Shown: one piece after another, positions 19,641 through 57,344 of the stretch
Layout of the letters: the number at the start of each line of letters is the position of its first letter
Position numbering within the stretch: the stretch's first letter is position 1
NCBI GenBank assembly: GCA_019843655.1
Contig: JACDQD010000007.1
Span: 12,449,846 to 12,513,845, forward strand
Origin: Lethocerus indicus
Taxonomy: Eukaryota; Arthropoda; Insecta; Hemiptera; Belostomatidae
DNA: 64,000 nt
Reading direction: 5' to 3'
Notes under the pieces: generated by a model
What the model was told of the DNA's origin: nothing
Databases searched by the model: none
The model's input: the letters and a program-made list of their open reading frames with translations, nothing else
Position numbers and translations under genes: made by a program

Positions 19641-19647
19641 GTTATAA

Positions 19648-20254: not shown

Positions 20255-20260
20255 ATTTTG

Positions 20261-24596: not shown

Positions 24597-27500
24597 TGTA
24601 TTTGTGATTTTGATTATATTATATTTTAACAATTATATTTCTATTATCTTTATAAAACGATGTATATTTACACATAGGATTCTATTAAATATTTTATATT
24701 AATTAAACTGAATGATTGCAGTACTATGTCTACTTAATTAATTTAGTAATGAATGAAATAAATGGGTAATCGATCAATTAATCTTTCTTAAAAATATTTA
24801 TTGATAACAAACTGTTTCACAAAAATCACTCTTATACTTGGCATTAGCTGAAATGATTGTTACTTGTAGAGGTTTATTTAAAAGAAAGAGATGTTTATCC
24901 CAAAATATACTTTTTACGGTTTTTAGTATAACCTGAGAAACACCATAAAAAGGTGAATAAAGCAAAGAACTCCGCAACTAAATAATGAACATTGAAATGG
25001 TTCATTGTTGAAATGAACATTCAACATTACTTAAAAAGAAACACCTATACTTTTCTATATTGGGCCTAAAAATAAACATAAGATCTGTGACAAAAGTTTT
25101 TTTTCACCTCTCTTTGGTGTTTCCTGCGTGAGAATTAAAAATATTTTTTATTAACGTATATACTCCTTTTTATCAAACCCATGTGAAAAATGATAATTTC
25201 AGCTAAACTTGTATATTAGGAAAATGTATAAATAAATGAAAATAACACCAATTGCATCAAGTATTCTAATTGTAGAATGGATTGTAGGTAACCCAGTGAG
25301 CTTTCATTTGGTTCTTTGCTTTGTCACTTGACGTAAACAAGGATTTGTAAGCACTGGAAGCTTCTGGATCTTTCGATATTTTATAGTTGTTGGGTTTGAT
25401 CTTTTTTGAATCGCTGACCGTATGTAAACTTGCTACAACTCCCACGGTTGTAGGTGGCCTTTTAGCACCATCTAAAAAAATAACGTTAGAACATTTTACA
25501 GATTTGATACACTAAACAAATTTTGGACATCACTGGCATTTATTTTTTTGTTTGCCAGGCTTCATATCTCTTGGAATATTTTATCTGTTGACATCTCAAT
25601 AGATCTTACCCAACCTTATTTCAACAGAAACACCCAGGATATCTTATAACAACAGGAAAATCAAACTCTCAACCTTGTGGTATAGAGAGCAAAACCTACA
25701 GATTCCTACATTTTTATGCATATAAATTGAAATGTAGAATAGAATGGAAATATTACTTTTAGATAATTTATCGGTGTTTAAGCTGTGCTGTGGTTTGTTA
25801 GAAGTTGAAGGACCCGGGTTCTGTTGTTGTTCTGGGTCTGAATTAGAGGCTGAACTGGAGGCTGAAGGAGCAGAAGCCTGCTGTTTGTTAGCTTTTTTCT
25901 GCGCCTTGGCCCTTGCTTGCCTCGCTTCAAGTCTAGTTGTCATCAAATCAAGATCATTGTCGGCTGCATTCAGTATGACTATGTCACTTTCCTCAATTTC
26001 TATTTGGCACTGCAAAAGATAATATTGTACTTTAATCAAAATTAATATTCAGTTAATCAAAACTATTATTTAGTTAATCAAAACTAATATTCAGTTAATC
26101 AAAATAAATATTCAGGTAATCAAACTATTATTCTGTTAATCAAAACTAATATTCAGTTAGTCAAAATAAATATTCAGGTAATCAAAACCATTATTCAGTT
26201 AATCAAAACTAATATTCAGTTAGTCAAAACTCATAATCAGTTAATCAAAACTATTATTCAGTTAATTAAAACTATTATTGAGTTAATCAAAATTAATATT
26301 CAGAATATCAAAATAAATATTCAGGTAATCATAACTATTATTCAGTTAATCAAAATTAATATTCAGGTTATCAAAACTATTATTCAGTTAATCAATATTA
26401 ATATTCAGTTAATCAAAATAAATATTCAGTTAATCAAAACTATTATTCGGTTAATAGTTCGGTTAATAGCAAAGATTCCTGATTTAAAATATCTGTTGAA
26501 TAGATGTATATTATTTTATAATAATTACTTAATTTAACTGATCTTTAATTAATAAATGTTTAATTTCAAAAGTATAATTGTGATGACAAAATCTAAAACT
26601 GGAAAATGTATAATTAAAATTAGAGCCTGTATTTTATGAAGAAGTAAATTAACTTAATTAAAGTCTTAAAACATTAATTAAGTGGAATTTTTGCATTTAC
26701 AAGAATCATTTTTGTGCCAATTTATTACAGCTGTCCTTAATGCACAAAGTTTACATAAATATTTAATATTTAAAAAAATAATATAACTGTCTCCTTCCTA
26801 TCTTAATGTGTTTGACCCTAAACAGAAAAATAGCATTCAAAATAGTACCAACATAGTACAAATAGTATCAATAGAAACAAAAATTAACCAGGATATCTAC
26901 TGGACAACAAATTACAACAACAATAAACAAATCTAGTGACAACAGTTTACATTAGCTCATTAAACCTTCGAACAAATCAACAGAATTACAGTGCTTAATT
27001 ATTATAAAAATAAATATCTATTTGTTATTTATATTAAAACTGCGCATTATGAATTATCAATTCCAAATATGGTCTCAATATGGTGAAGTTAATTACACAA
27101 ACAGAGTCTGCTTGCTGTTTTTCTGATGAATAATATAATTAACAAGTAATATAATTTAATTATTAATTTTCTTCTCACTTTGTGACAAAGATTACCCTTC
27201 AGTTGTTTCATGGCTCGTTCAGAAATTACACACCCACATTTCCATGAAAAACAAAACTTGAATTTGCCATTCATTTCAAGCCCAATTATGGGACATATGT
27301 AGGCGGCAGTCTGGTGGTCAACATAAATGTCACTCTTTCCTTCTCTAGGAGTGAATGCTGGATTCGGAGTCAAATTCAATTCTTTAATGTCCTATAAACA
27401 AAAGAAAAAGATTTAACATAAATAATACATTGCAGTATAAAAAACTCAACACTTTCAATTCCACTCAGAATGTTTTTCAGAATGGAAAGAGTAATTTTTA

Positions 27501-27801
27501 GCTGACCAGAATACAAGCCAGTAATTTCAATAAGACAATATATTTCAGCACCTAAAGTAACATAAAATTTTCAACTTCTTCAGTCATAAAATGATAGCTA
27601 GTTTACATTATTAGTAAATAATGTCATTCATAAAGCAATAGAAGAAAGATATCTTTAGTGTAGATACATAGTGCAATAACAATTTTACACTGTTATATGA
27701 ATACACTGATTATATTGACACAGAAGATAGAATCAAAATATTAACTTTATTAATTAATAATAAGTCTAATTATCTAGCCGGTCGGGGTATACAAGTGATA
27801 T
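24597..27801 (-). pseudogene. RTF2 3' exons, array C copy 1 (intact but orphaned)
   Basis: Exon 3 is at 27179-27391, exon 4 at 25757-26009 and exon 5 at 25266-25471, with stop at 25268-25266. All have the same lengths and phases as in copy 7, and all three reading frames are undamaged. The copy is separated from exons 1-2 by more than 21 kb and six other terminal exons, each with its own polyadenylation signal, and no promoter is evident, so it is probably not used. It is the farthest copy from the promoter. Like copy 8, its intron minisatellite has an extra unit that copies 2-7 lack. Confidence 0.85.
26040..26470 (-). repeat. 21-bp AT-rich minisatellite in RTF2 intron 3
   Basis: About 20 imperfect copies of a 21-bp unit built on AATCAAAACTATTATTCAG, between exons 3 and 4. 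Equivalent stretches lie at about 29232-29637, 32416-32820, 35602-36007, 38781-39186, 41952-42358 and 45130-45537. Copy 1 carries an extra AAATAAATATTCAGGTAATC module near 26103 that copies 2-7 lack. Confidence 0.9.
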
Positions 27802-30800
27802 TGTATTTGTGATTTTGATTATATTATATTTTAACAATTATATTTCTATTATCTTTATAAAACGATGTATATTTACACATAGGATTCTATTAAATATTTT
27901 ATATTAATTAAACTGAATGATTGCAGTACTATGTCTACTTAATTAATTTAGTAATGAATGAAATAAATGGGTAATCGATCAATTAATCTTTCTTAAAAAT
28001 ATTTATTGATAACAAACTGTTTCACAAAAATCACTCTTATACTTGGCATTAGCTGAAATGATTGTTACTTGTAGAGGTTTATTTAAAAGAAAGAGATGTT
28101 TATCCCAAAATATACTTTTACGGTTTTAGTATAACCTGAGAAACACCATAAAAGGTGAATAAAGCAAAGAACTCCGCAACTAAATAATGAACATTGAAAT
28201 GGTTCATTGTTGAAATGAACATTCAACATTACTTAAAAAGAAACACCTATACTTTTCTATATTGGGCCTAAAATAAACATAAGATCTGTGACAAAAGTTT
28301 TTTCACCTCTCTTTGGTGTTTCCTGCGTGAGAATTAAAAATATTTTTTATTAACGTATATACTCCTTTTATCAAACCCATGTGAAAATGATAATTTCAGC
28401 TAAACTTGTATATTAGGAAAATGTATAAATAAATGAAAATAACACCAATTGCATCAAGTATTCTAATTGTAGAATGGATTGTAGGTAACCCAGTGAGCTT
28501 TCATTTGGTTCTTTGCTTTGTCACTTGACGTAAACAAGGATTTGTAAGCACTGGAAGCTTCTGGATCTTTCGATATTTTATAGTTGTTGGGTTTGATCTT
28601 TTTGAATCGCTGACCGTATGTAAACTTGCTACAACTCCCACGGTTGTAGGTGGCCTTTAGCACCATCTAAAAATAACGTTAGAACATTTTACAGATTTGA
28701 TACACTAAACAAATTTTGGACATCACTGGCATTTATTTTTTGTTTGCCAGGCTTCATATCTCTTGGAATATTTTATCTGTTGACATCTCAATAGATCTTA
28801 CCCAACCTTATTTCAACAGAAACACCCAGGATATCTTATAACAACAGGAAAAATCAAACTCTCAACCTTGTGGTATAGAGAGCAAAACCTACAGATTCCT
28901 ACATTTTTATGCATATAAATTGAAATGTAGAATAGAATGGAAATATTACTTTTAGATAATTTATCGGTGTTTAAGCTGTGCTGTGGTTTGTTAGAAGTTG
29001 AAGGACCGGGTTCTGTTGTTGTTCTGGGTCTGAATTAGAGGCTGAACTGGAGGCTGAAGGAGCAGAAGCCTGCTGTTTGTTAGCTTTTTTCTGCGCCTTG
29101 GCCCTTGCTTGCCTCGCTTCAAGTCTAGTTGTCATCAAATCAAGATCATTGTCGGCTGCATTCAGTATGACTATGTCACTTTCCTCAATTTCTATTTGGC
29201 ACTGCAAAAGATAATATTGTACTTTAATCAAAATTAATATTCAGTTAATCAAAACTATTATTTAGTTAATCAAAACTAATATTCAGTTAATCAAACTATT
29301 ATTCTGTTAATCAAAACTAATATTCAGTTAGTCAAAATAAATATTCAGGTAATCAAAACCATTATTCAGTTAATCAAAACTAATATTCAGTTAGTCAAAA
29401 CTCATAATCAGTTAATCAAAACTATTATTCAGTTAATTAAAACTATTATTGAGTTAATCAAAATTAATATTCAGAATATCAAAATAAATATTCAGGTAAT
29501 CATAACTATTATTCAGTTAATCAAAATTAATATTCAGGTTATCAAAACTATTATTCAGTTAATCAATATTAATATTCAGTTAATCAAAATAAATATTCAG
29601 TTAATCAAAACTATTATTCGGTTAATAGTTCGGTTAATAGCAAAGATTCCTGATTTAAAATATCTGTTGAATAGATGTATATTATTTTATAATAATTACT
29701 TAATTTAACTGATCTTTAATTAATAAATGTTTAATTTCAAAAGTATAATTGTGATGACAAAATCTAAAACTGGAAAATGTATAATTAAAATTAGAGCCTG
29801 TATTTTATGAAGAAGTAAATTAACTTAATTAAAGTCTTAAAACATTAATTAAGTGGAATTTTTGCATTTACAAGAATCATTTTTGTGCCAATTTATTACA
29901 GCTGTCCTTAATGCACAAAGTTTACATAAATATTTAATATTTAAAAAAATAATATAACTGTCTCCTTCCTATCTTAATGTGTTTGACCCTAAACAGAAAA
30001 ATAGCATTCAAAATAGTACCAACATAGTACAAATAGTATCAATAGAAACAAAAATTAACCAGGATATCTACTGGACAACAAATTACAACAACAATAAACA
30101 AATCTAGTGACAACAGTTTACATTAGCTCATTAAACCTTCGGAACAAATCAACAGAATTACAGTGCTTAATTATTATAAAAAATAAATATCTATTTGTTA
30201 TTTATATTAAAACTGCGCATTATGAATTATCAATTCCAAATATGGTCTCAATATGGTGAAGTTAATTACACAAACAGAGTCTGCTTGCTGTTTTTCTGAT
30301 GAATAATATAATTAACAAGTAATATAATTTAATTATTAATTTTCTTCTCACTTTGTGACAAAGATTACCCTTCAGTTGTTTCATGGCTCGTTCAGAAATT
30401 ACACACCCACATTTCCATGAAAAACAAAACTTGAATTTGCCATTCATTTCAAGCCCAATTATGGGACATATGTAGGCGGCAGTCTGGTGGTCAACATAAA
30501 TGTCACTCTTTCCTTCTCTAGGAGTGAATGCTGGATTCGGAGTCAAATTCAATTCTTTAATGTCCTATAAACAAAAGAAAAAGATTTAACATAAATAATA
30601 CATTGCAGTATAAAAAACTCAACACTTTCAATTCCACTCAGAATGTTTTTCAGAATGGAAAGAGTAATTTTAGCTGACCAGAATACAAGCCAGTAATTTC
30701 AATAAGACAATATATTTCAGCACCTAAAGTAACATAAAATTTTCAACTTCTTCAGTCATAAAATGATAGCTAGTTTACATTATTAGTAAATAATGTCATT

Positions 30801-30976
30801 CATAAAGCAATAGAAGAAAGATATCTTTAGTGTAGATACATAGTGCAATAACAATTTTACACTGTTATATGAATACACTGATTATATTGACACAGAAGAT
30901 AGAATCAAAATATTAACTTTATTAATTAATAATAAGTCTAATTATCTAGCCCGGTCCGGAGTATACCAAGTGATAT
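27802..30976 (-). pseudogene. RTF2 3' exons, array C copy 2 (frameshifted)
   Basis: Exon 3 at 30352-30564 is intact. Exon 4 at 28950-29201 is one base short (a C lost in the CCCGGG run), which shifts the frame after the glutamine run. Exon 5 at 28463-28666 is two bases short (one A lost from each of two A runs); in the true frame this gives an early stop, although an ATG frame runs open across it. All losses are in homopolymers. Confidence 0.85.
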
Positions 30977-33900
30977 TGTATTTGTGATTTTGATTATATT
31001 ATATTTTAACAATTATATTTCTATTATCTTTATAAAACGATGTATATTTACACATAGGATTCTATTAAATATTTTATATTAATTAAACTGAATGATTGCA
31101 GTACTATGTCTACTTAATTAATTTAGTAATGAATGAAATAAATGGGTAATCGATCAATTAATCTTTCTTAAAAATATTTATTGATAACAAACTGTTTCAC
31201 AAAAATCACTCTTATACTTGGCATTAGCTGAAATGATTGTTACTTGTAGAGGTTTATTTAAAAGAAAGAGATGTTTATCCCAAAATATACTTTTTACGGT
31301 TTTTAGTATAACCTGAGAAACACCATAAAAAGGTGAATAAAGCAAAGAACTCCGCAACTAAATAATGAACATTGAAATGGTTCATTGTTGAAATGAACAT
31401 TCAACATTACTTAAAAAGAAACACCTATACTTTTCTATATTGGGCCTAAAAATAAACATAAGATCTGTGACAAAAGTTTTTTTTCACCTCTCTTTGGTGT
31501 TTCCTGCGTGAGAATTAAAAATATTTTTTTATTAACGTATATACTCCTTTTATCAAACCCATGTGAAAATGATAATTTCAGCTAAACTTGTATATTAGGA
31601 AAATGTATAAATAAATGAAAATAACACCAATTGCATCAAGTATTCTAATTGTAGAATGGATTGTAGGTAACCCAGTGAGCTTTCATTTGGTTCTTTGCTA
31701 TCCTTGGCGTAAACAAGGATTTGTAAGCACTGGAAGCTTCTGGATCTTTCGATATTTTATAGTTGTTGGGTTTGATCTTTTTGAATCGCTGACCGTATGT
31801 AAACTTGCTACAACTCCCACGGTTGTAGGTGGCCTTTTAGCACCATCTAAAAAAATAACGTTAGAACATTTTACAGATTTGATACACTAAACAAATTTTG
31901 GACATCACTGGCATTTATTTTTTTGTTTGCCAGGCTTCATATCTCTTGGAATATTTTATCTGTTGACATCTCAATAGATCTTACCCAACCTTATTTCAAC
32001 AGAAACACCCAGGATATCTTATAACAACAGGAAAAATCAAACTCTCAACCTTGTGGTATAGAGAGCAAAACCTACAGATTCCTACATTTTTATGCATATA
32101 AATTGAAATGTAGAATAGAATGGAAATATTACTTTTAGATAATTTATCGGTGTTTAAGCTGTGCTGTGGTTTGTTAGAAGTTGAAGGACCCAGGTTCTGT
32201 TATTGTTCTGGGGTCTGAATTAGAGGCTGAACTGGAGGCTGAAGGAGCAGAAGCCTGCTGTTTGTTAGCTTTTTCTGCGCCTTGGCCCTTGCTTGCCTCG
32301 CTTCAAGTCTAGTTGTCATCAAATCAAGATCATTGTCGGCTGCATTCAGTATGACTATGTCACTTTCCTCAATTTCTATTTGGCACTGCAAAAGATAATA
32401 TTGTACTTTAATCAAAATTAATATTCAGTTAATCAAAACTATTATTTAGTTAATCAAAACTAATATTCAGTTAATCAAACTATTATTCTGTTAATCAAAA
32501 CTAATATTCAGTTAGTCAAAATAAATATTCAGGTAATCAAAACCATTATTCAGTTAATCAAAACTAATATTCAGTTAGTCAAAACTCATAATCAGTTAAT
32601 CAAAACTATTATTCAGTTAATTAAAACTATTATTGAGTTAATCAAAATTAATATTCAGAATATCAAAATAAATATTCAGGTAATCATAACTATTATTCAG
32701 TTAATCAAAATTAATATTCAGGTTATCAAAACTATTATTCAGTTAATCAATATTAATATTCAGTTAATCAAAATAAATATTCAGTTAATCAAAACTATTA
32801 TTCGGTTAATAGTTCAGTTAATAGCAAAGATTCCTGATTTAAAATATCTGTTGAATAGATGTATATTATTTTATAATAATTACTTAATTTAACTGATCTT
32901 TAATTAATAAATGTTTAATTTCAAAAGTATAATTGTGATGACAAAATCTAAAACTGGAAAATGTATAATTAAAATTAGAGCCTGTATTTTATGAAGAAGT
33001 AAATTAACTTAATTAAAGTCTTAAAACATTAATTAAGTGGAATTTTTGCATTTACAAGAATCATTTTTGTGCCAATTTATTACAGCTGTCCTTAATGCAC
33101 AAAGTTTACATAAATATTTAATATTTAAAAAAATAATATAACTGTCTCCTTCCTATCTTAATGTGTTTGACCCTAAACAGAAAAATAGCATTCAAAATAG
33201 TACCAACATAGTACAAATAGTATCAATAGAAACAAAAATTAACCAGGATATCTACTGGACAACAAATTACAACAACAATAAACAAATCTAGTGACAACAG
33301 TTTACATTAGCTCATTAAACCTTCGGAACAAATCAACAGAATTACAGTGCTTAATTATTATAAAAAATAAATATCTATTTGTTATTTATATTAAAACTGC
33401 GCATTATGAATTATCAATTCCAAATATGGTCTCAATATGGTGAAGTTAATTACACAAACAGAGTCTGCTTGCTGTTTTTCTGATGAATAATATAATTAAC
33501 AAGTAATATAATTTAATTATTAATTTTCTTCTCACTTTGTGACAAAGATTACCCTTCAGTTGTTTCATGGCTCGTTCAGAAATTACACACCCACATTTCC
33601 ATGAAAACAAAACTTGAATTTGCCATTCATTTCAAGCCCAATTATGGGACATATGTAGGCGGCAGTCTGGTGGTCAACATAAATGTCACTCTTTCCTTCT
33701 CTAGGAGTGAATGCTGGATTCGGAGTCAAATTCAATTCTTTAATGTCCTATAAACAAAAGAAAAAGATTTAACATAAATAATACATTGCAGTATAAAAAC
33801 TCAACACTTTCAATTCCACTCAGAATGTTTTTCAGAATGGAAAGAGTAATTTTAGCTGACCAGAATACAAGCCAGTAATTTCAATAAGACAATATATTTC

Positions 33901-34154
33901 AGCACCTAAAGTAACATAAAATTTTCAACTTCTTCAGTCATAAAATGATAGCTAGTTTACATTATTAGTAAATAATGTCATTCATAAAGCAATAGAAGAA
34001 AGATATCTTTAGTGTAGATACATAGTGCAATAACAATTTTACACTGTTATATGAATACACTGATTATATTGACACAGAAGATAGAATCAAAATATTAACT
34101 TTATTAATTAATAATAAGTCTAATTATCTAGCCGGTCGGCGATACAAGTGATAT
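30977..34154 (-). pseudogene. RTF2 3' exons, array C copy 3 (frameshifted)
   Basis: Exon 3 at 33536-33747 is one base short (AAAA for AAAAA). Exon 4 at 32133-32385 loses one T-run base and gains a G, so its frame is wrong between the two. Exon 5 at 31645-31846 is four bases short and includes a real local rearrangement: the CTTTGTCACTTGACG block is replaced by a shorter CTATCCTTGGCG. This is the most damaged complete copy. Confidence 0.85.
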
Positions 34155-37100
34155 TGTATTTGTGATTTTGATTATATTATATTTTAACAATTATATTTCC
34201 TTATCTTTTATAAAGCGATGTATACTTTACACATGAGGATTTCTATTAAATATTTTATATTAATTAAACTGAATGATTGCAGTACTATGTCTACTTAATT
34301 AATTTAGTAATGAATGAAATAAATGGGTAATCGATCAATTAATCTTTCTTAAAAATATTTATTGATAACAAACTGTTTCACAAAAATCACTCTTATACTT
34401 GGCATTAGCTGAAATGATTGTTACTTGTAGAGGTTTATTTAAAAGAAAGAGATGTTTATCCCAAAATATACTTTTTACGGTTTTTAGTATAACCTGAGAA
34501 ACACCATAAAAAGGTGAATAAAGCAAAGAACTCCGCAACTAAATAATGAACATTGAAATGGTTCATTGTTGAAATGAACATTCAACATTACTTAAAAAGA
34601 AACACCTATACTTTTCTATATTGGGCCTAAAAATAAACATAAGATCTGTGACAAAAGTTTTTTTTCACCTCTCTTTGGTGTTTCCTGCGTGAGAATTAAA
34701 AATATTTTTTTATTAACGTATATACTCCTTTTTATCAAACCCATGTGAAAAATGATAATTTCAGCTAAACTTGTATATTAGGAAAATGTATAAATAAATG
34801 AAAATAACACCAATTGCATCAAGTATTCTAATTGTAGAATGGATTGTAGGTAACCCAGTGAGCTTTCATTTGGTTCTTTGCTTTGTCACTTGACGTAAAC
34901 AAGGATTTGTAAGCACTGGAAGCTTCTGGATCTTTCGATATTTTATAGTTGTTGGGTTTGATCTTTTTTGAATCGCTGACCGTATGTAAACTTGCTACAA
35001 CTCCCACGGTTGTAGGTGGCCTTTTAGCACCATCTAAAAAAATAACGTTAGAACATTTTACAGATTTGATACACTAAACAAATTTTGGACATCACTGGCA
35101 TTTATTTTTTTGTTTGCCAGGCTTCATATCTCTTGGAATATTTTATCTGTTGACATCTCAATAGATCTTACCCAACCTTATTTCAACAGAAACACCCAGG
35201 ATATCTTATAACAACAGGAAAAATCAAACTCTCAACCTTGTGGTATAGAGAGCAAAACCTACAGATTCCTACATTTTTATGCATATAAATTGAAATGTAG
35301 AATAGAATGGAAATATTACTTTTAGATAATTTATCGGTGTTTAAGCTGTGCTGTGGTTTGTTAGAAGTTGAAGGACCCGGTTCTGTTGTTGTTCTGGGTC
35401 TGAATTAGAGGCTGAACTGGAGGCTGAAGGAGCAGAAGCCTGCTGTTTGTTAGCTTTTTTCTGCGCCTTGGCCCTTGCTTGCCTCGCTTCAAGTCTAGTT
35501 GTCATCAAATCAAGATCATTGTCGGCTGCATTCAGTATGACTATGTCACTTTCCTCAATTTCTATTTGGCACTGCAAAAGATAATATTGTACTTTAATCA
35601 AAATTAATATTCAGTTAATCAAAACTATTATTTAGTTAATCAAAACTAATATTCAGTTAATCAAACTATTATTCTGTTAATCAAAACTAATATTCAGTTA
35701 GTCAAAATAAATATTCAGGTAATCAAAACCATTATTCAGTTAATCAAAACTAATATTCAGTTAGTCAAAACTCATAATCAGTTAATCAAAACTATTATTC
35801 AGTTAATTAAAACTATTATTGAGTTAATCAAAATTAATATTCAGAATATCAAAATAAATATTCAGGTAATCATAACTATTATTCAGTTAATCAAAATTAA
35901 TATTCAGGTTATCAAAACTATTATTCAGTTAATCAATATTAATATTCAGTTAATCAAAATAAATATTCAGTTAATCAAAACTATTATTCGGTTAATAGTT
36001 CGGTTAATAGCAAAGATTCCTGATTTAAAATATCTGTTGAATAGATGTATATTATTTTATAATAATTACTTAATTTAACTGATCTTTAATTAATAAATGT
36101 TTAATTTCAAAAGTATAATTGTGATGACAAAATCTAAAACTGGAAAATGTATAATTAAAATTAGAGCCTGTATTTTATGAAGAAGTAAATTAACTTAATT
36201 AAAGTCTTAAAACATTAATTAAGTGGAATTTTGCATTTACAAGAATCATTTTGTGCCAATTTATTACAGCTGTCCTTAATGCACAAAGTTTACATAAATA
36301 TTTAATATTTAAAAAATAATATAACTGTCTCCTTCCTATCTTAATGTGTTTGACCCTAAACAGAAAAATAGCATTCAAAATAGTACCAACATAGTACAAA
36401 TAGTATCAATAGAAACAAAAATTAACCAGGATATCTACTGGACAACAAATTACAACAACAATAAACAAATCTAGTGACAACAGTTTACATTAGCTCATTA
36501 AACCTTCGAACAAATCAACAGAATTACAGTGCTTAATTATTATAAAAATAAATATCTATTTGTTATTTATATTAAAACTGCGCATTATGAATTATCAATT
36601 CCAAATATGGTCTCAATATGGTGAAGTTAATTACACAAACAGAGTCTGCTTGCTGTTTTTCTGATGAATAATATAATTAACAAGTAATATAATTTAATTA
36701 TTAATTTTCTTCTCACTTTGTGACAAAGATTACCCTTCAGTTGTTTCATGGCTCGTTCAGAAATTACACACCCACATTTCCATGAAAACAAAACTTGAAT
36801 TTGCCATTCATTTCAAGCCCAATTATGGGACATATGTAGGCGGCAGTCTGGTGGTCAACATAAATGTCACTCTTTCCTTCTCTAGGAGTGAATGCTGGAT
36901 TCGAGTCAAATTCAATTCTTTAATGTCCTATAAACAAAAGAAAAGATTTAACATAAATAATACATTGCAGTATAAAAACTCAACACTTTCAATTCCACTC
37001 AGAATGTTTTTCAGAATGGAAAGAGTAATTTTAGCTGACCAGAATACAAGCCAGTAATTTCAATAAGACAATATATTTCAGCACCTAAAGTAACATAAAA

Positions 37101-37337
37101 TTTTCAACTTCTTCAGTCATAAAATGATAGCTAGTTTACATTATTAGTAAATAATGTCATTCATAAAGCAATAGAAGAAAGATATCTTTAGTGTAGATAC
37201 ATAGTGCAATAACAATTTTACACTGTTATATGAATACACTGATTATATTGACACAGAAGATAGAATCAAAATATTAACTTTATTAATTAATAATAAGTCT
37301 AATTATCTAGCCGGTCGGGGGCGTATACAAGTGATAT
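34155..37337 (-). pseudogene. RTF2 3' exons, array C copy 4 (frameshifted)
   Basis: Exon 5 at 34828-35033 is intact. Exon 4 at 35320-35571 is one base short in the CCCGGG run. Exon 3 at 36717-36927 is two bases short (one A, and one G in TCGGAG). The unit start (about 34196-34245) also has several run-length gains not seen elsewhere. Confidence 0.85.
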
Positions 37338-40300
37338 TGTATTTGTGATTTTGATTATATTATATTTTAACAATTATATTTCTATTATCTTTATAAAACG
37401 ATGTATATTTACACATAGGATTCTATTAAATATTTTATATTAATTAAACTGAATGATTGCAGTACTATGTCTACTTAATTAATTTAGTAATGAATGAAAT
37501 AAATGGGTAATCGATCAATTAATCTTTCTTAAAAATATTTATTGATAACAAACTGTTTCACAAAAATCACTCTTATACTTGGCATTAGCTGAAATGATTG
37601 TTACTTGTAGAGGTTTATTTAAAAGAAAGAGATGTTTATCCCAAAATATACTTTTTACGGTTTTTAGTATAACCTGAGAAACACCATAAAAAGGTGAATA
37701 AAGCAAAGAACTCCGCAACTAAATAATGAACATTGAAATGGTTCATTGTTGAAATGAACATTCAACATTACTTAAAAAGAAACACCTATACTTTTCTATA
37801 TTGGGCCTAAAAATAAACATAAGATCTGTGACAAAAGTTTTTTTTCACCTCTCTTTGGTGTTTCCTGCGTGAGAATTAAAAATATTTTTTTATTAACGTA
37901 TATACTCCTTTTTATCAAACCCATGTGAAAAATGATAATTTCAGCTAAACTTGTATATTAGGAAAATGTATAAATAAATGAAAATAACACCAATTGCATC
38001 AAGTATTCTAATTGTAGAATGGATTGTAGGTAACCCAGTGAGCTTTCATTTGGTTCTTTGCTTTGTCACTTGACGTAAACAAGGATTTGTAAGCACTGGA
38101 AGCTTCTGGATCTTTCGATATTTTATAGTTGTTGGGTTTGATCTTTTTTGAATCGCTGACCGTATGTAAACTTGCTACAACTCCCACGGTTGTAGGTGGC
38201 CTTTTAGCACCATCTAAAAAAATAACGTTAGAACATTTTACAGATTTGATACACTAAACAAATTTTGGACATCACTGGCATTTATTTTTTTGTTTGCCAG
38301 GCTTCATATCTCTTGGAATATTTTATCTGTTGACATCTCAATAGATCTTACCCAACCTTATTTCAACAGAAACACCCAGGATATCTTATAACAACAGGAA
38401 AAATCAAACTCTCAACCTTGTGGTATAGAGAGCAAAACCTACAGATTCCTACATTTTTATGCATATAAATTGAAATGTAGAATAGAATGGAAATATTACT
38501 TTTAGATAATTTATCGGTGTTTAAGCTGTGCTGTGGTTTGTTAGAAGTTGAAGGACCCGGTTCTGTTGTTGTTCTGGGTCTGAATTAGAGGCTGAACTGG
38601 AGGCTGAAGGAGCAGAAGCCTGCTGTTTGTTAGCTTTTTCTGCGCCTTGGCCCTTGCTTGCCTCGCTTCAAGTCTAGTTGTCATCAAATCAAGATCATTG
38701 TCGGCTGCATTCAGTATGACTATGTCACTTTCCTCAATTTCTATTTGGCACTGCAAAAGATAATATTGTACTTTAATCAAAATTAATATTCAGTTAATCA
38801 AAACTATTATTTAGTTAATCAAAACTAATATTCAGTTAATCAAACTATTATTCTGTTAATCAAAACTAATATTCAGTTAGTCAAAATAAATATTCAGGTA
38901 ATCAAAACCATTATTCAGTTAATCAAAACTAATATTCAGTTAGTCAAAACTCATAATCAGTTAATCAAAACTATTATTCAGTTAATTAAAACTATTATTG
39001 AGTTAATCAAAATTAATATTCAGAATATCAAAATAAATATTCAGGTAATCATAACTATTATTCAGTTAATCAAAATTAATATTCAGGTTATCAAAACTAT
39101 TATTCAGTTAATCAATATTAATATTCAGTTAATCAAAATAAATATTCAGTTAATCAAAACTATTATTCGGTTAATAGTTCGGTTAATAGCAAAGATTCCT
39201 GATTTAAAATATCTGTTGAATAGATGTATATTATTTTATAATAATTACTTAATTTAACTGATCTTTAATTAATAAATGTTTAATTTCAAAAGTATAATTG
39301 TGATGACAAAATCTAAAACTGGAAAATGTATAATTAAAATTAGAGCCTGTATTTTATGAAGAAGTAAATTAACTTAATTAAAGTCTTAAAACATTAATTA
39401 AGTGGAATTTTGCATTTACAAGAATCATTTTGTGCCAATTTATTACAGCTGTCCTTAATGCACAAAGTTTACATAAATATTTAATATTTAAAAAATAATA
39501 TAACTGTCTCCTTCCTATCTTAATGTGTTTGACCCTAAACAGAAAAATAGCATTCAAAATAGTACCAACATAGTACAAATAGTATCAATAGAAACAAAAA
39601 TTAACCAGGATATCTACTGGACAACAAATTACAACAACAATAAACAAATCTAGTGACAACAGTTTACATTAGCTCATTAAACCTTCGAACAAATCAACAG
39701 AATTACAGTGCTTAATTATTATAAAAATAAATATCTATTTGTTATTTATATTAAAACTGCGCATTATGAATTATCAATTCCAAATATGGTCTCAATATGG
39801 TGAAGTTAATTACACAAACAGAGTCTGCTTGCTGTTTTTCTGATGAATAATATAATTAACAAGTAATATAATTTAATTATTAATTTTCTTCTCACTTTGT
39901 GACAAAGATTACCCTTCAGTTGTTTCATGGCTCGTTCAGAAATTACACACCCACATTTCCATGAAAACAAAACTTGAATTTGCCATTCATTTCAAGCCCA
40001 ATTATGGGACATATGTAGGCGGCAGTCTGGTGGTCAACATAAATGTCACTCTTTCCTTCTCTAGGAGTGAATGCTGGATTCGAGTCAAATTCAATTCTTT
40101 AATGTCCTATAAACAAAAGAAAAGATTTAACATAAATAATACATTGCAGTATAAAAACTCAACACTTTCAATTCCACTCAGAATGTTTTTCAGAATGGAA
40201 AGAGTAATTTTAGCTGACCAGAATACAAGCCAGTAATTTCAATAAGACAATATATTTCAGCACCTAAAGTAACATAAAATTTTCAACTTCTTCAGTCATA

Positions 40301-40511
40301 AAATGATAGCTAGTTTACATTATTAGTAAATAATGTCATTCATAAAGCAATAGAAGAAAGATATCTTTAGTGTAGATACATAGTGCAATAACAATTTTAC
40401 ACTGTTATATGAATACACTGATTATATTGACACAGAAGATAGAATCAAAATATTAACTTTATTAATTAATAATAAGTCTAATTATCTAGCCGGTCGGTAT
40501 ACAAGTGATAT
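37338..40511 (-). pseudogene. RTF2 3' exons, array C copy 5 (frameshifted)
   Basis: Exon 5 at 38008-38213 is intact. Exon 4 at 38500-38750 is two bases short (T run and G run). Exon 3 at 39896-40106 is two bases short, with the same two losses as copy 4, so copies 4 and 5 are the closest pair by exon 3. Confidence 0.85.
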
Positions 40512-43500
40512 TGTATTTGTGATTTTGATTATATTATATTTTAACAATTATATTTCTATTATCTTTATAAAACGATGTATATTTACACATAGGATTCTAT
40601 TAAATATTTTATATTAATTAAACTGAATGATTGCAGTACTATGTCTACTTAATTAATTTAGTAATGAATGAAATAAATGGGTAATCGATCAATTAATCTT
40701 TCTTAAAAATATTTATTGATAACAAACTGTTTCACAAAAATCACTCTTATACTTGGCATTAGCTGAAATGATTGTTACTTGTAGAGGTTTATTTAAAAGA
40801 AAGAGATGTTTATCCCAAAATATACTTTTACGGTTTTAGTATAACCTGAGAAACACCATAAAAGGTGAATAAAGCAAAGAACTCCGCAACTAAATAATGA
40901 ACATTGAAATGGTTCATTGTTGAAATGAACATTCAACATTACTTAAAAAGAAACACCTATACTTTTCTATATTGGGCCTAAAATAAACATAAGATCTGTG
41001 ACAAAAGTTTTTTTTCACCTCTCTTTGGTGTTTCCTGCGTGAGAATTAAAAATATTTTTTTATTAACGTATATACTCCTTTTTATCAAACCCATGTGAAA
41101 AATGATAATTTCAGCTAAACTTGTATATTAGGAAAAATGTATAAATAAATGAAAATAACACCAATTGCATCAAGTATTCTAATTGTAGAATGGATTGTAG
41201 GTAACCCAGTGAGCTTTCATTTGGTTCTTTGCTTTGTCACTTGACGTAAACAAGGATTTGTAAGCACTGGAAGCTTCTGGATCTTTCGATATTTTATAGT
41301 TGTTGGGTTTGATCTTTTTTGAATCGCTGACCGTATGTAAACTTGCTACAACTCCCACGGTTGTAGGTGGCCTTTTAGCACCATCTAAAAAAATAACGTT
41401 AGAACATTTTACAGATTTGATACACTAAACAAATTTTGGACATCACTGGCATTTATTTTTTTGTTTGCCAGGCTTCATATCTCTTGGAATATTTTATCTG
41501 TTGACATCTCAATAGATCTTACCCAACCTTATTTCAACAGAAACACCCAGGATATCTTATAACAACAGGAAAAATCAAACTCTCAACCTTGTGGTATAGA
41601 GAGCAAAACCTACAGATTCCTACATTTTTATGCATATAAATTGAAATGTAGAATAGAATGGAAATATTACTTTTAGATAATTTATCGGTGTTTAAGCTGT
41701 GCTGTGGTTTGTTAGAAGTTGAAGGACCGGGTTCTGTTGTTGTTCTGGGTCTGAATTAGAGGCTGAACTGGAGGCTGAAGGAGCAGAAGCCTGCTGTTTG
41801 TTAGCTTTTTCTGCGCCTTGGCCCTTGCTTGCCTCGCTTCAAGTCTAGTTGTCATCAAATCAAGATCATTGTCGGCTGCATTCAGTATGACTATGTCACT
41901 TTCCTCAATTTCTATTTGGCACTGCAAAAGATAATATTGTACTTTAATCAAAATTAATATTCAGTTAATCAAAACTATTATTTAGTTAATCAAAACTAAT
42001 ATTCAGTTAATCAAACTATTATTCTGTTAATCAAAACTAATATTCAGTTAGTCAAAATAAATATTCAGGTAATCAAAACCATTATTCAGTTAATCAAAAC
42101 TAATATTCAGTTAGTCAAAACTCATAATCAGTTAATCAAAACTATTATTCAGTTAATTAAAACTATTATTGAGTTAATCAAAATTAATATTCAGAATATC
42201 AAAATAAATATTCAGGTAATCATAACTATTATTCAGTTAATCAAAATTAATATTCAGGTTATCAAAACTATTATTCAGTTAATCAATATTAATATTCAGT
42301 TAATCAAAATAAATATTCAGTTAATCAAAACTATTATTCGGTTAATAGTTCGGTTAATAGCAAAGATTCCTGATTTAAAATATCTGTTGAATAGATGTAT
42401 ATTATTTTATAATAATTACTTAATTTAACTGATCTTTAATTAATAAATGTTTAATTTCAAAAGTATAATTGTGATGACAAAATCTAAAACTGGAAAATGT
42501 ATAATTAAAATTAGAGCCTGTATTTTATGAAGAAGTAAATTAACTTAATTAAAGTCTTAAAACATTAATTAAGTGGAATTTTTGCATTTACAAGAATCAT
42601 TTTTGTGCCAATTTATTACAGCTGTCCTTAATGCACAAAGTTTACATAAATATTTAATATTTAAAAAAATAATATAACTGTCTCCTTCCTATCTTAATGT
42701 GTTTGACCCTAAACAGAAAAATAGCATTCAAAATAGTACCAACATAGTACAAATAGTATCAATAGAAACAAAAATTAACCAGGATATCTACTGGACAACA
42801 AATTACAACAACAATAAACAAATCTAGTGACAACAGTTTACATTAGCTCATTAAACCTTCGGAACAAATCAACAGAATTACAGTGCTTAATTATTATAAA
42901 AAATAAATATCTATTTGTTATTTATATTAAAACTGCGCATTATGAATTATCAATTCCAAATATGGTCTCAATATGGTGAAGTTAATTACACAAACAGAGT
43001 CTGCTTGCTGTTTTTCTGATGAATAATATAATTAACAAGTAATATAATTTAATTATTAATTTTCTTCTCACTTTGTGACAAAGATTACCCTTCAGTTGTT
43101 TCATGGCTCGTTCAGAAATTACACACCCACATTTCCATGAAAACAAAACTTGAATTTGCCATTCATTTCAAGCCCAATTATGGGACATATGTAGGCGGCA
43201 GTCTGGTGGTCAACATAAATGTCACTCTTTCCTTCTCTAGGAGTGAATGCTGGATTCGGAGTCAAATTCAATTCTTTAATGTCCTATAAACAAAAGAAAA
43301 AGATTTAACATAAATAATACATTGCAGTATAAAAACTCAACACTTTCAATTCCACTCAGAATGTTTTTCAGAATGGAAAGAGTAATTTTAGCTGACCAGA
43401 ATACAAGCCAGTAATTTCAATAAGACAATATATTTCAGCACCTAAAGTAACATAAAATTTTCAACTTCTTCAGTCATAAAATGATAGCTAGTTTACATTA

Positions 43501-43694
43501 TTAGTAAATAATGTCATTCATAAAGCAATAGAAGAAAGATATCTTTAGTGTAGATACATAGTGCAATAACAATTTTACACTGTTATATGAATACACTGAT
43601 TATATTGACACAGAAGATAGAATCAAAATATTAACTTTATTAATTAATAATAAGTCTAATTATCTAGCCGGTCGGGGGCGTATACAAGTGATAT
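40512..43694 (-). pseudogene. RTF2 3' exons, array C copy 6 (frameshifted)
   Basis: Exon 5 at 41179-41384 is intact. Exon 4 at 41671-41921 is two bases short. Exon 3 at 43072-43283 is one base short in the AAAAA run. Otherwise near-identical to copy 7. Confidence 0.85.
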
Positions 43695-44236
43695 TGTATT
43701 TGTGATTTTGATTATATTATATTTTAACAATTATATTTCTATTATCTTTATAAAACGATGTATATTTACACATAGGATTCTATTAAATATTTTATATTAA
43801 TTAAACTGAATGATTGCAGTACTATGTCTACTTAATTAATTTAGTAATGAATGAAATAAATGGGTAATCGATCAATTAATCTTTCTTAAAAATATTTATT
43901 GATAACAAACTGTTTCACAAAAATCACTCTTATACTTGGCATTAGCTGAAATGATTGTTACTTGTAGAGGTTTATTTAAAAGAAAGAGATGTTTATCCCA
44001 AAATATACTTTTACGGTTTTAGTATAACCTGAGAAACACCATAAAAGGTGAATAAAGCAAAGAACTCCGCAACTAAATAATGAACATTGAAATGGTTCAT
44101 TGTTGAAATGAACATTCAACATTACTTAAAAAGAAACACCTATACTTTTCTATATTGGGCCTAAAATAAACATAAGATCTGTGACAAAAGTTTTTTCACC
44201 TCTCTTTGGTGTTTCCTGTGAGAATTAAAAATATTT

Positions 44237-44242
44237 TTTATT
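44237..44242 (-). promoter_or_regulatory. Candidate RTF2 polyadenylation signal
   Basis: AATAAA on the minus strand about 113 bases after the stop codon of exon 5, copy 7. The same hexamer is present at the same place in the other units, so each unit would end a transcript that enters it. Confidence 0.5.
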
Positions 44243-44354
44243 AACGTATATACTCCTTTTATCAAACCCATGTGAAAAATGATAATTTCAGCTAAACTTG
44301 TATATTAGGAAAATGTATAAATAAATGAAAATAACACCAATTGCATCAAGTATT

Positions 44355-44560
44355 CTAATTGTAGAATGGATTGTAGGTAACCCAGTGAGCTTTCATTTGG
44401 TTCTTTGCTTTGTCACTTGACGTAAACAAGGATTTGTAAGCACTGGAAGCTTCTGGATCTTTCGATATTTTATAGTTGTTGGGTTTGATCTTTTTTGAAT
44501 CGCTGACCGTATGTAAACTTGCTACAACTCCCACGGTTGTAGGTGGCCTTTTAGCACCAT
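44355..44560 (-). CDS. RTF2: RTF2 exon 5 (copy 7)
   Basis: Begins after a T-run acceptor ending TTTTAG, completes the split codon, and encodes NGAKRPP through YNPFYN to a TAG stop at 44357-44355. The correct frame depends on the four-A and six-A runs being called fully; copy 2 shows what happens when one A is lost from each. Confidence 0.88.
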
Positions 44561-47500
44561 CTAAAAAAATAACGTTAGAACATTTTACAGATTTGATACA
44601 CTAAACAAATTTTGGACATCACTGGCATTTATTTTTTTGTTTGCCAGGCTTCATATCTCTTGGAATATTTTATCTGTTGACATCTCAATAGATCTTACCC
44701 AACCTTATTTCAACAGAAACACCCAGGATATCTTATAACAACAGGAAAAATCAAACTCTCAACCTTGTGGTATAGAGAGCAAAACCTACAGATTCCTACA
44801 TTTTTATGCATATAAATTGAAATGTAGAATAGAATGGAAATATTACTTTTAGATAATTTATCGGTGTTTAAGCTGTGCTGTGGTTTGTTAGAAGTTGAAG
44901 GACCCGGGTTCTGTTGTTGTTCTGGGTCTGAATTAGAGGCTGAACTGGAGGCTGAAGGAGCAGAAGCCTGCTGTTTGTTAGCTTTTTTCTGCGCCTTGGC
45001 CCTTGCTTGCCTCGCTTCAAGTCTAGTTGTCATCAAATCAAGATCATTGTCGGCTGCATTCAGTATGACTATGTCACTTTCCTCAATTTCTATTTGGCAC
45101 TGCAAAAGATAATATTGTACTTTAATCAAAATTAATATTCAGTTAATCAAAACTATTATTTAGTTAATCAAAACTAATATTCAGTTAATCAAACTATTAT
45201 TCTGTTAATCAAAACTAATATTCAGTTAGTCAAAATAAATATTCAGGTAATCAAAACCATTATTCAGTTAATCAAAACTAATATTCAGTTAGTCAAAACT
45301 CATAATCAGTTAATCAAAACTATTATTCAGTTAATTAAAACTATTATTGAGTTAATCAAAATTAATATTCAGAATATCAAAATAAATATTCAGGTAATCA
45401 TAACTATTATTCAGTTAATCAAAATTAATATTCAGGTTATCAAAACTATTATTCAGTTAATCAATATTAATATTCAGTTAATCAAAATAAATATTCAGTT
45501 AATCAAAACTATTATTCGGTTAATAGTTCGGTTAATAGCAAAGATTCCTGATTTAAAATATCTGTTGAATAGATGTATATTATTTTATAATAATTACTTA
45601 ATTTAACTGATCTTTAATTAATAAATGTTTAATTTCAAAAGTATAATTGTGATGACAAAATCTAAAACTGGAAAATGTATAATTAAAATTAGAGCCTGTA
45701 TTTTATGAAGAAGTAAATTAACTTAATTAAAGTCTTAAAACATTAATTAAGTGGAATTTTTGCATTTACAAGAATCATTTTTGTGCCAATTTATTACAGC
45801 TGTCCTTAATGCACAAAGTTTACATAAATATTTAATATTTAAAAAAATAATATAACTGTCTCCTTCCTATCTTAATGTGTTTGACCCTAAACAGAAAAAT
45901 AGCATTCAAAATAGTACCAACATAGTACAAATAGTATCAATAGAAACAAAAATTAACCAGGATATCTACTGGACAACAAATTACAACAACAATAAACAAA
46001 TCTAGTGACAACAGTTTACATTAGCTCATTAAACCTTCGAACAAATCAACAGAATTACAGTGCTTAATTATTATAAAAATAAATATCTATTTGTTATTTA
46101 TATTAAAACTGCGCATTATGAATTATCAATTCCAAATATGGTCTCAATATGGTGAAGTTAATTACACAAACAGAGTCTGCTTGCTGTTTTTCTGATGAAT
46201 AATATAATTAACAAGTAATATAATTTAATTATTAATTTTCTTCTCACTTTGTGACAAAGATTACCCTTCAGTTGTTTCATGGCTCGTTCAGAAATTACAC
46301 ACCCACATTTCCATGAAAAACAAAACTTGAATTTGCCATTCATTTCAAGCCCAATTATGGGACATATGTAGGCGGCAGTCTGGTGGTCAACATAAATGTC
46401 ACTCTTTCCTTCTCTAGGAGTGAATGCTGGATTCGGAGTCAAATTCAATTCTTTAATGTCCTATAAACAAAAGAAAAAGATTTAACATAAATAATACATT
46501 GCAGTATAAAAACTCAACACTTTCAATTCCACTCAGAATCTTTTCCAGGAATGGGAAGAGTAATTTTTTAACTGACCAGAATACAAGCCAGTAATTTCAA
46601 TAAGACAATATATTTCAGCACCTAAAGTAACATAAAATTTTCAACTTCTTCAGTCATAAAATGATAGCTAGTTTACATTATTAGTAAATAATGTCATTCA
46701 TAAAGCAATAGAAGAAAGATATCTTTAGTGTAGATACATAGTGCAATAACAATTTTACACTGTTATATGAATACACTGATTATATTGACACAGAAGATAG
46801 AATCAAAATATTAACTTTATTAATTAATAATAAGTCTAATTATCCTAGCCGGTCCGGGGAAGTATACAAGTGATATTGTATTTGTGATTTTGATTATATT
46901 ATATTTTAACAATTATATTTCTATTATCTTTATAAAACGATGTATATTTACACATAGGATTCTATTAAATATTTTATATTAATTAAACTGAATGATTGCA
47001 GTACTATGTCTACTTAATTAATTTAGTAATGAATGAAATAAATGGGTAATCGATCAATTAATCTTTCTTAAAAATATTTATTGATAACAAACTGTTTCAC
47101 AAAAATCACTCTTATACTTGGCATTAGCTGAAATGATTGTTACTTGTAGAGGTTTATTTAAAAGAAAGAGATGTTTATCCCAAAATATACTTTTACGGTT
47201 TTAGTATAACCTGAGAAACACCATAAAAAGGTGAATAAGCCAAGAACTCGCAACTAAATAATGAACATTGAAATGGTTCATTGTTGAAATGAACATTCAA
47301 CATTACTTAAAAAGAAACACCTATACTTTTCTATATTGGGCCTAAAATAAACATAAGATCTGTGACAAAGTTTTTTCACCTCTCTTTGGTGTTTCCTGCG
47401 TGAGAATTAAAAATATTTTTTATTAACGTATATACTCCTTTTATCAAACCCATGTGAAAATGATAATTTCAGCTAAACTTGTATATTAGGAAAAATGTAT

Positions 47501-49433
47501 AAATAAATGAAAATAACACCAATTGCATCAAGTATTCTAATTGTAGAATGGATTGTAGGTAACCCAGTGAGCTTTCATTTGGTTCTTTGCTTTGTCACTT
47601 GACGTAAACAAGGATTTGTAAGCACTGGAAGCTTCTGGATCTTTCGATATTTTATAGTTGTTGGGTTTGATCTTTTTTGAATCGCTGACCGTATGTAAAC
47701 TTGCTACAACTCCCACGGTTGTAGGTGGCCTTTTAGCACCATCTAAAAAAATAACGTTAGAACATTTTACAGATTTGATACACTAAACAAATTTTGGACA
47801 TCACTGGCATTTATTTTTTGTTTGCCAGGCTTCATATCTCTTGGAATATTTTATCTGTTGACATCTCAATAGATCTTACCCAACCTTATTTCAACAGAAA
47901 CACCCAGGATATCTTATAACAACAGGAAAAATCAAACTCTCAACCTTGTGGTATAGAGAGCAAAACCTACAGATTCCTACATTTTATGCATATAAATTGA
48001 AATGTAGAATAGAATGGAAATATTACTTTTAGATAATTTATCGGTGTTTAAGCTGTGCTGTGGTTTGTTAGAAGTTGAAGGACCGGGTTCTGTTGTTGTT
48101 CTGGGTCTGAATTAGAGGCTGAACTGGAGGCTGAAGGAGCAGAAGCCTGCTGTTTGTTAACTTTTTCTCGCCTTGGGCCTTGCTTGCCTCGCTTCAAGTC
48201 TAGTTGTCATCAAATCAAGATCATTGTCGGCTGCATTCAGTATGACTATGTCACTTTCCTCAATTTCTATTTGGCACTGCAAAAGATAATATTGTACTTT
48301 AATCAAAATTAATATTCAGTTAATCAAAACTATTATTTAGTTAATCAAAACTAATATTCAGTTAATCAAAATAAATATTCAGGTAATCAAACTATTATTC
48401 TGTTAATCAAAACTAATATTCAGTTAGTCAAAATAAATATTCAGGTAATCAAAACCATTATTCAGTTAATCAAAACTAATATTCAGTTAGTCAAAACTCA
48501 TAATCAGTTAATCAAAACTATTATTCAGTTAATTAAAACTATTATTGAGTTAATCAAAATTAATATTCAGAATATCAAAATAAATATTCAGGTAATCATA
48601 ACTATTATTCAGTTAATCAAAATTAATATTCAGGTTATCAAAACTATTATTCAGTTAATCAATATTAATATTCAGTTAATCAAAATAAATATTCAGTTAA
48701 TCAAAACTATTATTCAGTTAATCAATATTAATATTCAGTTAATCAAAATAAATATTCAGTTAATCAAAACTATTATTCGGTTAATAGTTCGGTTAATAGC
48801 AAAGATTCCTGATTTAAAATATCTGTTGAATAGATGTATATTATTTTATAATAATTACTTAATTTAACTGATCTTTAATTAATAAATGTTTAATTTCAAA
48901 AAGTATAATTGTGATGACAAAATCTAAAACTTAGTGTCTAATTAATAAGTCTAATTAATCTAGCCAAGCTTCAGATACAAATATGGTGGTTATATTTTTT
49001 GAAATAGAGAAGCACAATCTTTACTTTCAGTGATTTAATGTGTTTAGCAGATTCTGGCAATGTAGATTTGTCGAGGATGCCCATAATAACTGAATCCTTG
49101 TTGTAGAGTCTGCCCAATCCACAAGCTACAATAGGTGGGACCAGAGGAGCCTGAGATATGTTACAACATCTCCATTTAAAATTTAAATCTGACTGTTTAT
49201 CTTTCTGAAACAAAGTAAATTATCATCGAATTAGAATTTCCAATTACACATATATGTGGCATCAGGTTTTCAGAGGTAATAGTCTACTGATCAAAGAACA
49301 CATATTAATGTAACAATTCAAGTTGTTGTAAATCATAATCAGATACAATGAACTTTGAACATACAGTCTCTGCTTTTTTCTTGGTCCTCACCAACTCGTC
49401 GCGTTTGGGGATTGTACCACCGTCGCAACCCAT
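44355..49433 (-). CDS. RTF2: RTF2, replication termination factor 2 (five exons, using array C copy 7)
   Basis: Exons (minus strand): 49433-49365, 49204-49025, 46460-46248, 45099-44847, 44560-44355 including the stop. Phases match at every junction (0, 0, 0, 1) and the joined protein has 306 residues, about the usual family length. Exon 1 begins MGCDGGTIPKR, the invariant RTF2 start. Residues 47-60 read PIVACGLGRLYNKD, 116-126 CPIIGLEMNGK, and the RING-like cysteines are at 36/37, 51, 116, 130, 135, 137, 152 and 155. The last pair (CHKC) is split by the exon 3/4 junction. A charged helix (about 176-198) leads into a Ser/Ala/Gln-rich stretch, and the end (about 279-306) carries the conserved AYKSLF and AHWVTYNPFYN. 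RTF2 is a nuclear factor at stalled or terminating replication forks, removed by proteasome shuttles in vertebrates, and is also linked to splicing. Exon recognition is strong; use of copy 7 rather than another copy is inferred from position and intactness. Confidence 0.9.
44847..45099 (-). CDS. RTF2: RTF2 exon 4 (copy 7)
   Basis: Encodes residues 155-238 plus one base, between acceptor CTTTTGCAG and donor AAAA|GTAATA. It begins with the last cysteine of the domain and ends in the low-complexity Ser/Ala/Gln/Pro stretch. The plus-strand open frame over the same bases (44834-45112) is its shadow. Confidence 0.9.
46248..46460 (-). CDS. RTF2: RTF2 exon 3 (copy 7)
   Basis: Encodes residues 84-154 between acceptor TTTGTTTATAG and donor AAA|GTGAGA. 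It holds six of the domain's cysteines counting the final CH. It is the exon 3 nearest to exon 2, because copy 8 lacks this exon. Intron 2 is thereby stretched to 2,564 bp and contains all of copy 8. Confidence 0.9.
46877..48965 (-). pseudogene. RTF2 3' exons, array C copy 8 (exon 3 deleted, exon 4 with stop)
   Basis: This unit lies inside intron 2 of the working gene. Exon 5 (47537-47742) keeps its full length. Exon 4 (48027-48276) is three bases short from separate indels and stops at a TAA after ARKS, about 45 codons in. Its G-to-A change (TTAACTTTTTC for TTAGCTTTTTTC) is a true substitution. At about 48930 the sequence jumps from AATCTAAAAC to TAATAAGTCTAATTAATC, removing about 1.16 kb that includes exon 3. 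Splice sites of exons 4 and 5 remain, so it may compete in splicing. Confidence 0.85.
48301..48800 (-). repeat. 21-bp minisatellite, expanded allele in copy 8
   Basis: The same repeat as at 26040, but longer. It has the extra module shared with copy 1 and a further duplicated stretch (ATTAATATTCAGTTAATC block repeated near 48660 and 48725). Confidence 0.85.
49025..49204 (-). CDS. RTF2: RTF2 exon 2
   Basis: Encodes residues 24-83 between acceptor TTTGTTTCAG and donor AAA|GTAAAG, phase 0 at both ends. It contains the first part of the RING-like domain, with the very conserved GRLYNKD. Exons 1 and 2 are outside the array and occur once. Confidence 0.93.
49365..49433 (-). CDS. RTF2: RTF2 exon 1
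   Basis: Encodes residues 1-23, starting at ATG 49433-49431. The start is fixed by the family-invariant N terminus MGCDGGTIPKR. Donor ACT|GTATGT; intron 1 is 160 bp. Confidence 0.92.
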
Positions 49434-57075: not shown

Positions 57076-57169
57076 ATGAGTGCAACCAAATCATTTGAAT
57101 TTTTGGAAAATTATACATTATTTTGCTTCTTTATAAGTATACTGGAATCCAGGTTCCACAGACCAGCTT

Positions 57170-57255
57170 ACACAGAAAAAGACAGACACACAGACACAGA
57201 CACAAAAGACAGACACACAGACACAGACACACACACACACAAACACAAACACACA

Positions 57256-57342: not shown

Positions 57343-57344
<2 letters not shown>

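What the first reader, a model, noticed from the sequence alone, without database searches (positions are those of the whole stretch)
24597..49433. Seven-and-a-half-fold tandem amplification of the 3' half of RTF2
Exons 1-2 of RTF2 are single-copy, but exons 3-5 with introns and the polyadenylation signal occur in seven complete 3.18-kb units plus one shortened unit, all in gene orientation. Exons 1, 2 and those of copy 7 join in phase into a complete 306-residue protein. Amplifying only the terminal exons of an essential-type replication-fork gene, leaving a functional path, is unusual. Seen directly: units, splice sites, phases. From family knowledge: the RTF2 identity. Inferred: that copy 7 is used.
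Basis: partly seen in the sequence, partly recalled or inferred. Interest (0 to 1): 0.88.

Follow-up and report, generated by a model that had tools for sequence, protein, structure and literature searches.

The report
Young partial RTF2 gene array
In what is probably a water-bug genome, the last exons of RTF2, a DNA-replication gene, appear eight times in a row in the assembly; the copies are almost identical and their broken reading frames look like sequencing errors, so this is probably a very young partial-gene duplication whose copy number cannot be trusted without raw reads.

Summary
The layout is in the sequence as described: RTF2 exons 1-2 once, then eight head-to-tail copies of the 3' half (minus strand, 24597-49433). 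RTF2 identity is confirmed (Pfam Rtf2, E 1.6e-85). The best protein hit is the water scorpion Ranatra chinensis, so the host is probably a nepomorph true bug.

Three corrections. (1) The unit nearest exon 2 has no exon 3, so exons 4-5 and polyA signals stand between exon 2 and the first exon 3. (3) The frameshifts in the other units are mostly one-base homopolymer losses with almost no isolated substitutions, unlike most other repeats in the window, so they look like consensus error, not decay.

A 22-28 bp filler at all seven internal junctions, and minisatellite lengths that separate end from core units, argue for a real array of at least three units. The number eight is unproven. Most likely: a young partial-gene amplification without new function. 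Read depth could not be tested and the whole-genome tool did not complete.

The parts
49365..49433 (-). RTF2 exon 1 (coding part, from ATG)
49025..49204 (-). RTF2 exon 2, ends in phase 0
48939..48963 (-). Sequence in intron 2 resembling the 5' boundary of the units (CTAG...), left edge of the exon 3 deletion in the short unit
46877..48930 (-). U1, shortened unit next to exon 2: no exon 3; exon 4 48276-48027 (three one-base losses), exon 5 47742-47537, AATAAA at 47424, 47158, 47082
43695..46876 (-).
46849..46876 (-). Junction filler, here 28 bp; 22-28 bp versions at the other six internal junctions (unit starts at 43694, 40511, 37337, 34154, 30976, 27801)
40512..43694 (-). U3, full unit: exons 43283-43072, 41921-41671, 41384-41179; three coding one-base losses
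37338..40511 (-). U4, full unit: exons 40106-39896, 38750-38500, 38213-38008; four coding one-base losses
34155..37337 (-). U5, full unit: exons 36927-36717, 35571-35320, 35033-34828; three coding one-base losses
30977..34154 (-). U6, full unit: exons 33747-33536, 32385-32133, 31846-31645; six coding indels and four coding substitutions
27802..30976 (-). U7, full unit: exons 30564-30352, 29201-28950, 28666-28463; three coding one-base losses
24597..27801 (-). U8, full unit at the far end: exons 27391-27179, 26009-25757, 25471-25266; CDS identical to the U2 path; ends in unique sequence without filler
48299..48785 (.). 21-bp minisatellite of intron 3 in U1, 487 bp; 424 bp in U8 (26032-26455) and 403 bp in each of U2-U7

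Best explanation
A very recent head-to-tail duplication in an insect RTF2 gene, with breakpoints in intron 2 and about 670 bp past the stop codon, was expanded by unequal exchange into at least three, and as assembled eight, near-identical units. The end unit next to exon 2 lost exon 3. The frameshifts in the middle units are mostly uncorrected homopolymer errors of the consensus, not pseudogene decay. Full-length RTF2, if made from this allele, must come from exon 2 joined to an exon 3 beyond the short unit (nearest: 46460), skipping that unit's exons 4-5 and polyA signals; otherwise it comes from another allele or copy. Shown: units, splice sites, phases, error signature, junction filler. 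Inferred: at least three units in the genome, the order of events and mechanism, the splice route. No new function is proposed.
For: RTF2 identity. Array. Errors: across U2-U8, 39 indel columns outside one 21-bp block (27 of 39 in runs of 4 or more) against 21 substitution columns, 20 of which have other differences within 15 columns. Six adjacent unit pairs: 18 substitutions, 83 indels, 70 of them 1-2 bp changes in runs of 2 or more; 13 control comparisons from other repeats of the window: 452 substitutions, 225 indels, 98 of that kind. Homopolymer changes are thus about as frequent as in the controls, but the substitutions that accompany them there are missing. Coding indels against the intact frame: 22 events in six of seven other units (21 losses, 1 gain; by my count 19 of 22 are single bases in a run), none in U8. 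A real tandem state: 7 of 7 internal junctions carry related filler, found nowhere else in the window; U1 and U8 share a 21-bp minisatellite block that all of U2-U7 lack and U1 is longer still. Short-read polishing is unreliable in repeats and homopolymer errors remain (PMC8812927, abstract and passages).
Against: No reads, depth or second assembly, so copy number is untested; core units could be over-counted or two haplotypes chained. Homopolymer states shared by U4 and U5 could be real variants. The filler differs in its middle from junction to junction by more than run length. One of 13 controls, beside the N gap, is also indel-rich (29 substitutions, 50 indels), and controls overlap one another. 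Indels per kb are not higher in this array than in the controls. The missing exon 3 in U1 makes the literal allele awkward for a gene essential in mouse (PMC10908796, passages).
Confidence: 0.62

Rival explanations
1. Assembly artefact: the genome has one RTF2 gene, or at most a two-unit duplication, and the assembler repeated or chained the 3' half from the same reads or from two haplotypes.
For: Core units nearly free of isolated substitutions; identical minisatellite length in all six core units; noisy consensus patches; false exon duplications within one gene on one scaffold are documented (PMC9516828, passages).
Against: A junction joining the gene's downstream end to intron 2, with filler, needs molecules that hold it; three unit types differ by whole 21-bp repeats.
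Confidence: 0.25
2. Real array with only copy 7 functional, the other units being decayed pseudogene copies.
For: Frames in U3-U7 are broken as written; U2 holds the exon 3 nearest to exon 2.
Against: U8 is identical to U2 over exons 3-5; 21 of 22 coding indels are losses, mostly in runs, without matching substitutions.
Confidence: 0.06
3. Real array with a role: repeated terminal exon sets tune RTF2 level or give an exon 3-less form of 235 residues made from exons 1-2 and the short unit.
For: Exon 3 is phase 0 on both sides and the short unit offers the first exon 4-5 and polyA signals.
Against: As written the short unit's exon 4 runs into a stop; units are not diversified; no expression data.
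Confidence: 0.07

Closest known systems
RTF2 (Pfam PF04641, replication termination factor 2)
   Same: The 306-residue product matches the whole model (1-258 of 258) and Ranatra chinensis RTF2 over its full length.
   Different: Exons 3-5 are repeated in the assembly and the first repeat lacks exon 3.
Tandem duplications with breakpoints inside genes, as surveyed in Drosophila yakuba and D. simulans (PMC4503668, passages)
   Same: Head-to-tail duplication with a breakpoint inside a gene.
   Different: Here several near-identical units of terminal exons only; the passages I saw describe no such multi-unit array.
False exon gain in genome assemblies (PMC9516828, passages)
   Same: Repeated exons of one gene on one scaffold with signs of sequence error.
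   Different: A recurring junction filler and end-versus-core length types argue for at least one real duplication.

Membership tests
RTF2 (PF04641) | Scores above the Pfam cut-off over the model | tested here: met
   287 bits against 27.4, model 1-258 of 258
RTF2 (PF04641) | Start MGCDGGTIP and cysteines shared with other insect RTF2 | tested here: met
   Invariant columns among 6 sequences
RTF2 (PF04641) | Acts at replication forks | not testable with these tools
   Function known in mammals (PMC10908796, passages)
Genomic tandem duplication | Head-to-tail copies with a shared novel junction | tested here: met
   7 of 7 internal junctions with related filler, as assembled
Genomic tandem duplication | Raised depth or reads across junctions | not testable with these tools
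   No reads available
Diverged pseudogene array | Substitutions accumulate between copies | tested here: not met
   Of 21 substitution columns in U2-U8 one is isolated
Assembly false duplication | Depth gap, low depth or discordant reads between copies | not testable with these tools
   No reads available
Alternative terminal-exon array | Diversified and expressed alternative exons | tested here: inconclusive
   Units are not diversified; expression not testable

The most novel reading that the evidence does not exclude
A fixed, very young array of eight promoterless terminal-exon sets sits inside an essential replication-fork gene. RTF2 is expressed only because splicing skips a complete terminal exon set and its polyA signals, with an exon 3-less RTF2 of 235 residues made as a second product.
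Probability: 0.1. Interest if true: 0.7.

Novelty: new member of a known kind. Interest (0 to 1): 0.35.

Why it matters
If real, it is a young natural case of a partial-gene array in which an important gene must splice past a whole terminal exon set, which would allow a direct test of terminal-exon skipping and polyA read-through. If not, it shows how uncorrected homopolymer errors in repeats can pass for pseudogene decay and single out a false working copy.

Tried and rejected
Pseudogene decay and age by divergence: rejected as the main account, because differences are mostly homopolymer indels and the substitutions cluster.

Copy 7 as the only usable copy: rejected, U8 is identical over exons 3-5.

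Source of the filler in the window: a 20-base pattern with up to 3 mismatches gave 5 matches, all at unit junctions; the junctions at 34154 and 30976 differ too much to match but are read directly.

Surroundings: no Rfam match at gathering threshold, no tRNA by ARAGORN, no Pfam match at E 0.1 for 10 flanking open frames chosen from those listed. The solved-structure search gave two insignificant matches, E 0.61 and 0.8.

A second RTF2 in the genome: nine identical requests to the genome search did not complete, so presence or absence is unknown.

Literature: eight searches. In the rows listed, no title or abstract start reports a partial RTF2 array; one search asked for RTF2 with duplication terms, 1,451 papers held three of four terms, 8 were listed and none of the 8 holds RTF2; one search found no paper. 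This is a thin search, not proof of absence in print.

Full report
OBSERVATION. Self-comparison shows a direct array from 24597 with unit offsets of 3174-3205 bp and a shorter last piece reaching about 48.93 kb. Exons 1, 2 and U2's exons 3-5 give 306 residues. The product scores 287 bits for Pfam Rtf2. Its best hit is Ranatra chinensis RTF2, 73% identical by BLASTP over the whole query (1,843 proteins found, 120 listed) and 76% in a six-sequence alignment. The next named hits include the bugs Rhynocoris and Halyomorpha. The source is probably a nepomorph bug; the species is not established. Identity to Ranatra by exon is 76 of 83 residues (exons 1-2), 59 of 71 (exon 3), 39 of 75 aligned (exon 4) and 49 of 63 aligned (exon 5), so the repeated exons look like coding sequence that was under constraint until recently.

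U1 has no exon 3. About 1.15 kb is missing against a full unit, between a stretch at 48939-48963 that resembles the unit's 5' boundary and a point just upstream of the intron 3 minisatellite. U1 keeps exon 4, exon 5, the stop and AATAAA at 47424, 47158 and 47082. So the first terminal exon set a transcript meets lacks exon 3. Exon 2 ends in phase 0 and exon 3 begins and ends in phase 0, so exon 2 to exon 4 keeps frame in principle and, with U2's exon letters, gives 235 residues; with U1's own letters exon 4 runs into a stop.

COPY 7 IS NOT SPECIAL. U8, at the far end, has exons 3-5 letter-identical to U2. Against that frame the other six units carry 22 coding indel events, 21 losses and one gain; 19 of the 22 are, by my count, a single base in a run of two or more. 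The two intact units are the far-end unit and the first full unit at the near end, which would fit better correction near unique sequence; that last step is inference.

THE DIFFERENCES ARE MOSTLY ERRORS. Over the alignment of U2-U8 beyond the junction there are 81 variable columns: 21 from one minisatellite block, 39 other indel columns, 21 substitution columns. Of the 39 indel columns, 27 lie in runs of four or more. Of the 21 substitution columns, 20 have other variable columns within 15 positions; they fall in U5 (10), U6 (6), U2 (4) and one column split between units. Taking every substitution as real gives about 0.1% per unit (21 in some 22 kb). Controls: 13 comparisons of other repeats in the window gave 452 substitutions and 225 indels, the six adjacent RTF2 pairs 18 and 83 (Fisher P about 8e-21, indicative only because comparisons overlap). 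Twelve of the 13 controls have more substitutions than indels; one, beside the N gap, has 29 against 50. Against a simple 'more errors here' reading: indels per kb are not higher in this array than in the controls (83 in 18.7 kb against 225 in 17.1 kb). What sets the array apart is the near absence of the substitutions that should accompany homopolymer changes if these were old mutations. Polishing work describes such a residue: long-read errors are mostly homopolymer-length errors and often remain in repeats after short-read polishing (PMC8812927, abstract and passages). The sequencing platform behind this window is unknown to me.

IS THE ARRAY REAL? Two structural facts are hard to get from base-calling noise. 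First, all seven internal junctions carry a related filler of 22-28 bp between the unit end and the CTAG of the next unit, while U8 runs into a different, unique sequence; a window search finds the filler only at unit junctions. Its middle varies between junctions by more than run length, which may be noise in a C/G-rich stretch. Second, the intron 3 minisatellite is 487 bp in U1, 424 bp in U8 and 403 bp in each of U2-U7, and U1 and U8 share a 21-bp block that the core lacks. The simplest history is a first duplication whose edge units kept the older length, expansion of a shortened core unit by unequal exchange, and loss of exon 3 in U1. This needs at least three units; the six core units may be over- or under-counted. 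For the artefact view: the core units are almost identical, false exon duplications in one gene on one scaffold are documented (PMC9516828, passages), and haplotype chaining could mimic length types. I put a real array of three or more units at about 0.6-0.7.

FUNCTION. RTF2 is essential for mouse embryonic development while heterozygous mice are viable (PMC10908796, passages). If the allele is homozygous as written, full-length RTF2 needs exon 2 joined to an exon 3 at 46460 or beyond, past U1's terminal exons. If it is heterozygous, or if the U1 deletion is an error, no unusual splicing is needed. No expression evidence was available, and the full units are not diversified, so I see no sign of a new function.

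COMPARISON. It belongs to the known kind 'young tandem duplication with a breakpoint inside a gene' (surveyed in Drosophila; PMC4503668, passages), here with several units.

LIMITS. The whole-genome tool did not complete, so a second RTF2 was not sought, and no reads were available.

Noticed in passing
window 51673-63999: Satellite array with a unit of about 494-498 bp, interrupted by an AC-rich run near 57182-57342; copies differ mainly by substitutions.
   Followed up: partly
window 1568-15516: Nested tandem repeats with offsets of about 0.55, 0.78, 1.8, 2.4 and 4.1-4.4 kb and an inverted relative at 1-1062.
   Followed up: partly
window 1467-1566: A run of exactly 100 N, probably a scaffold gap beside the first repeat array; the control pair next to it is indel-rich.
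   Followed up: no
window 50894-51124: A 70-bp tandem repeat, 3.3 copies, about 1.5 kb upstream of RTF2 exon 1.
   Followed up: no
window 18061-22298: Direct copies (18413-19642 and 21079-22298, 89%) with inverted copies (18251-18621 and 20261-20630, 98.7%); looks like mobile-element debris, but the open frames tried gave no Pfam match.
   Followed up: partly
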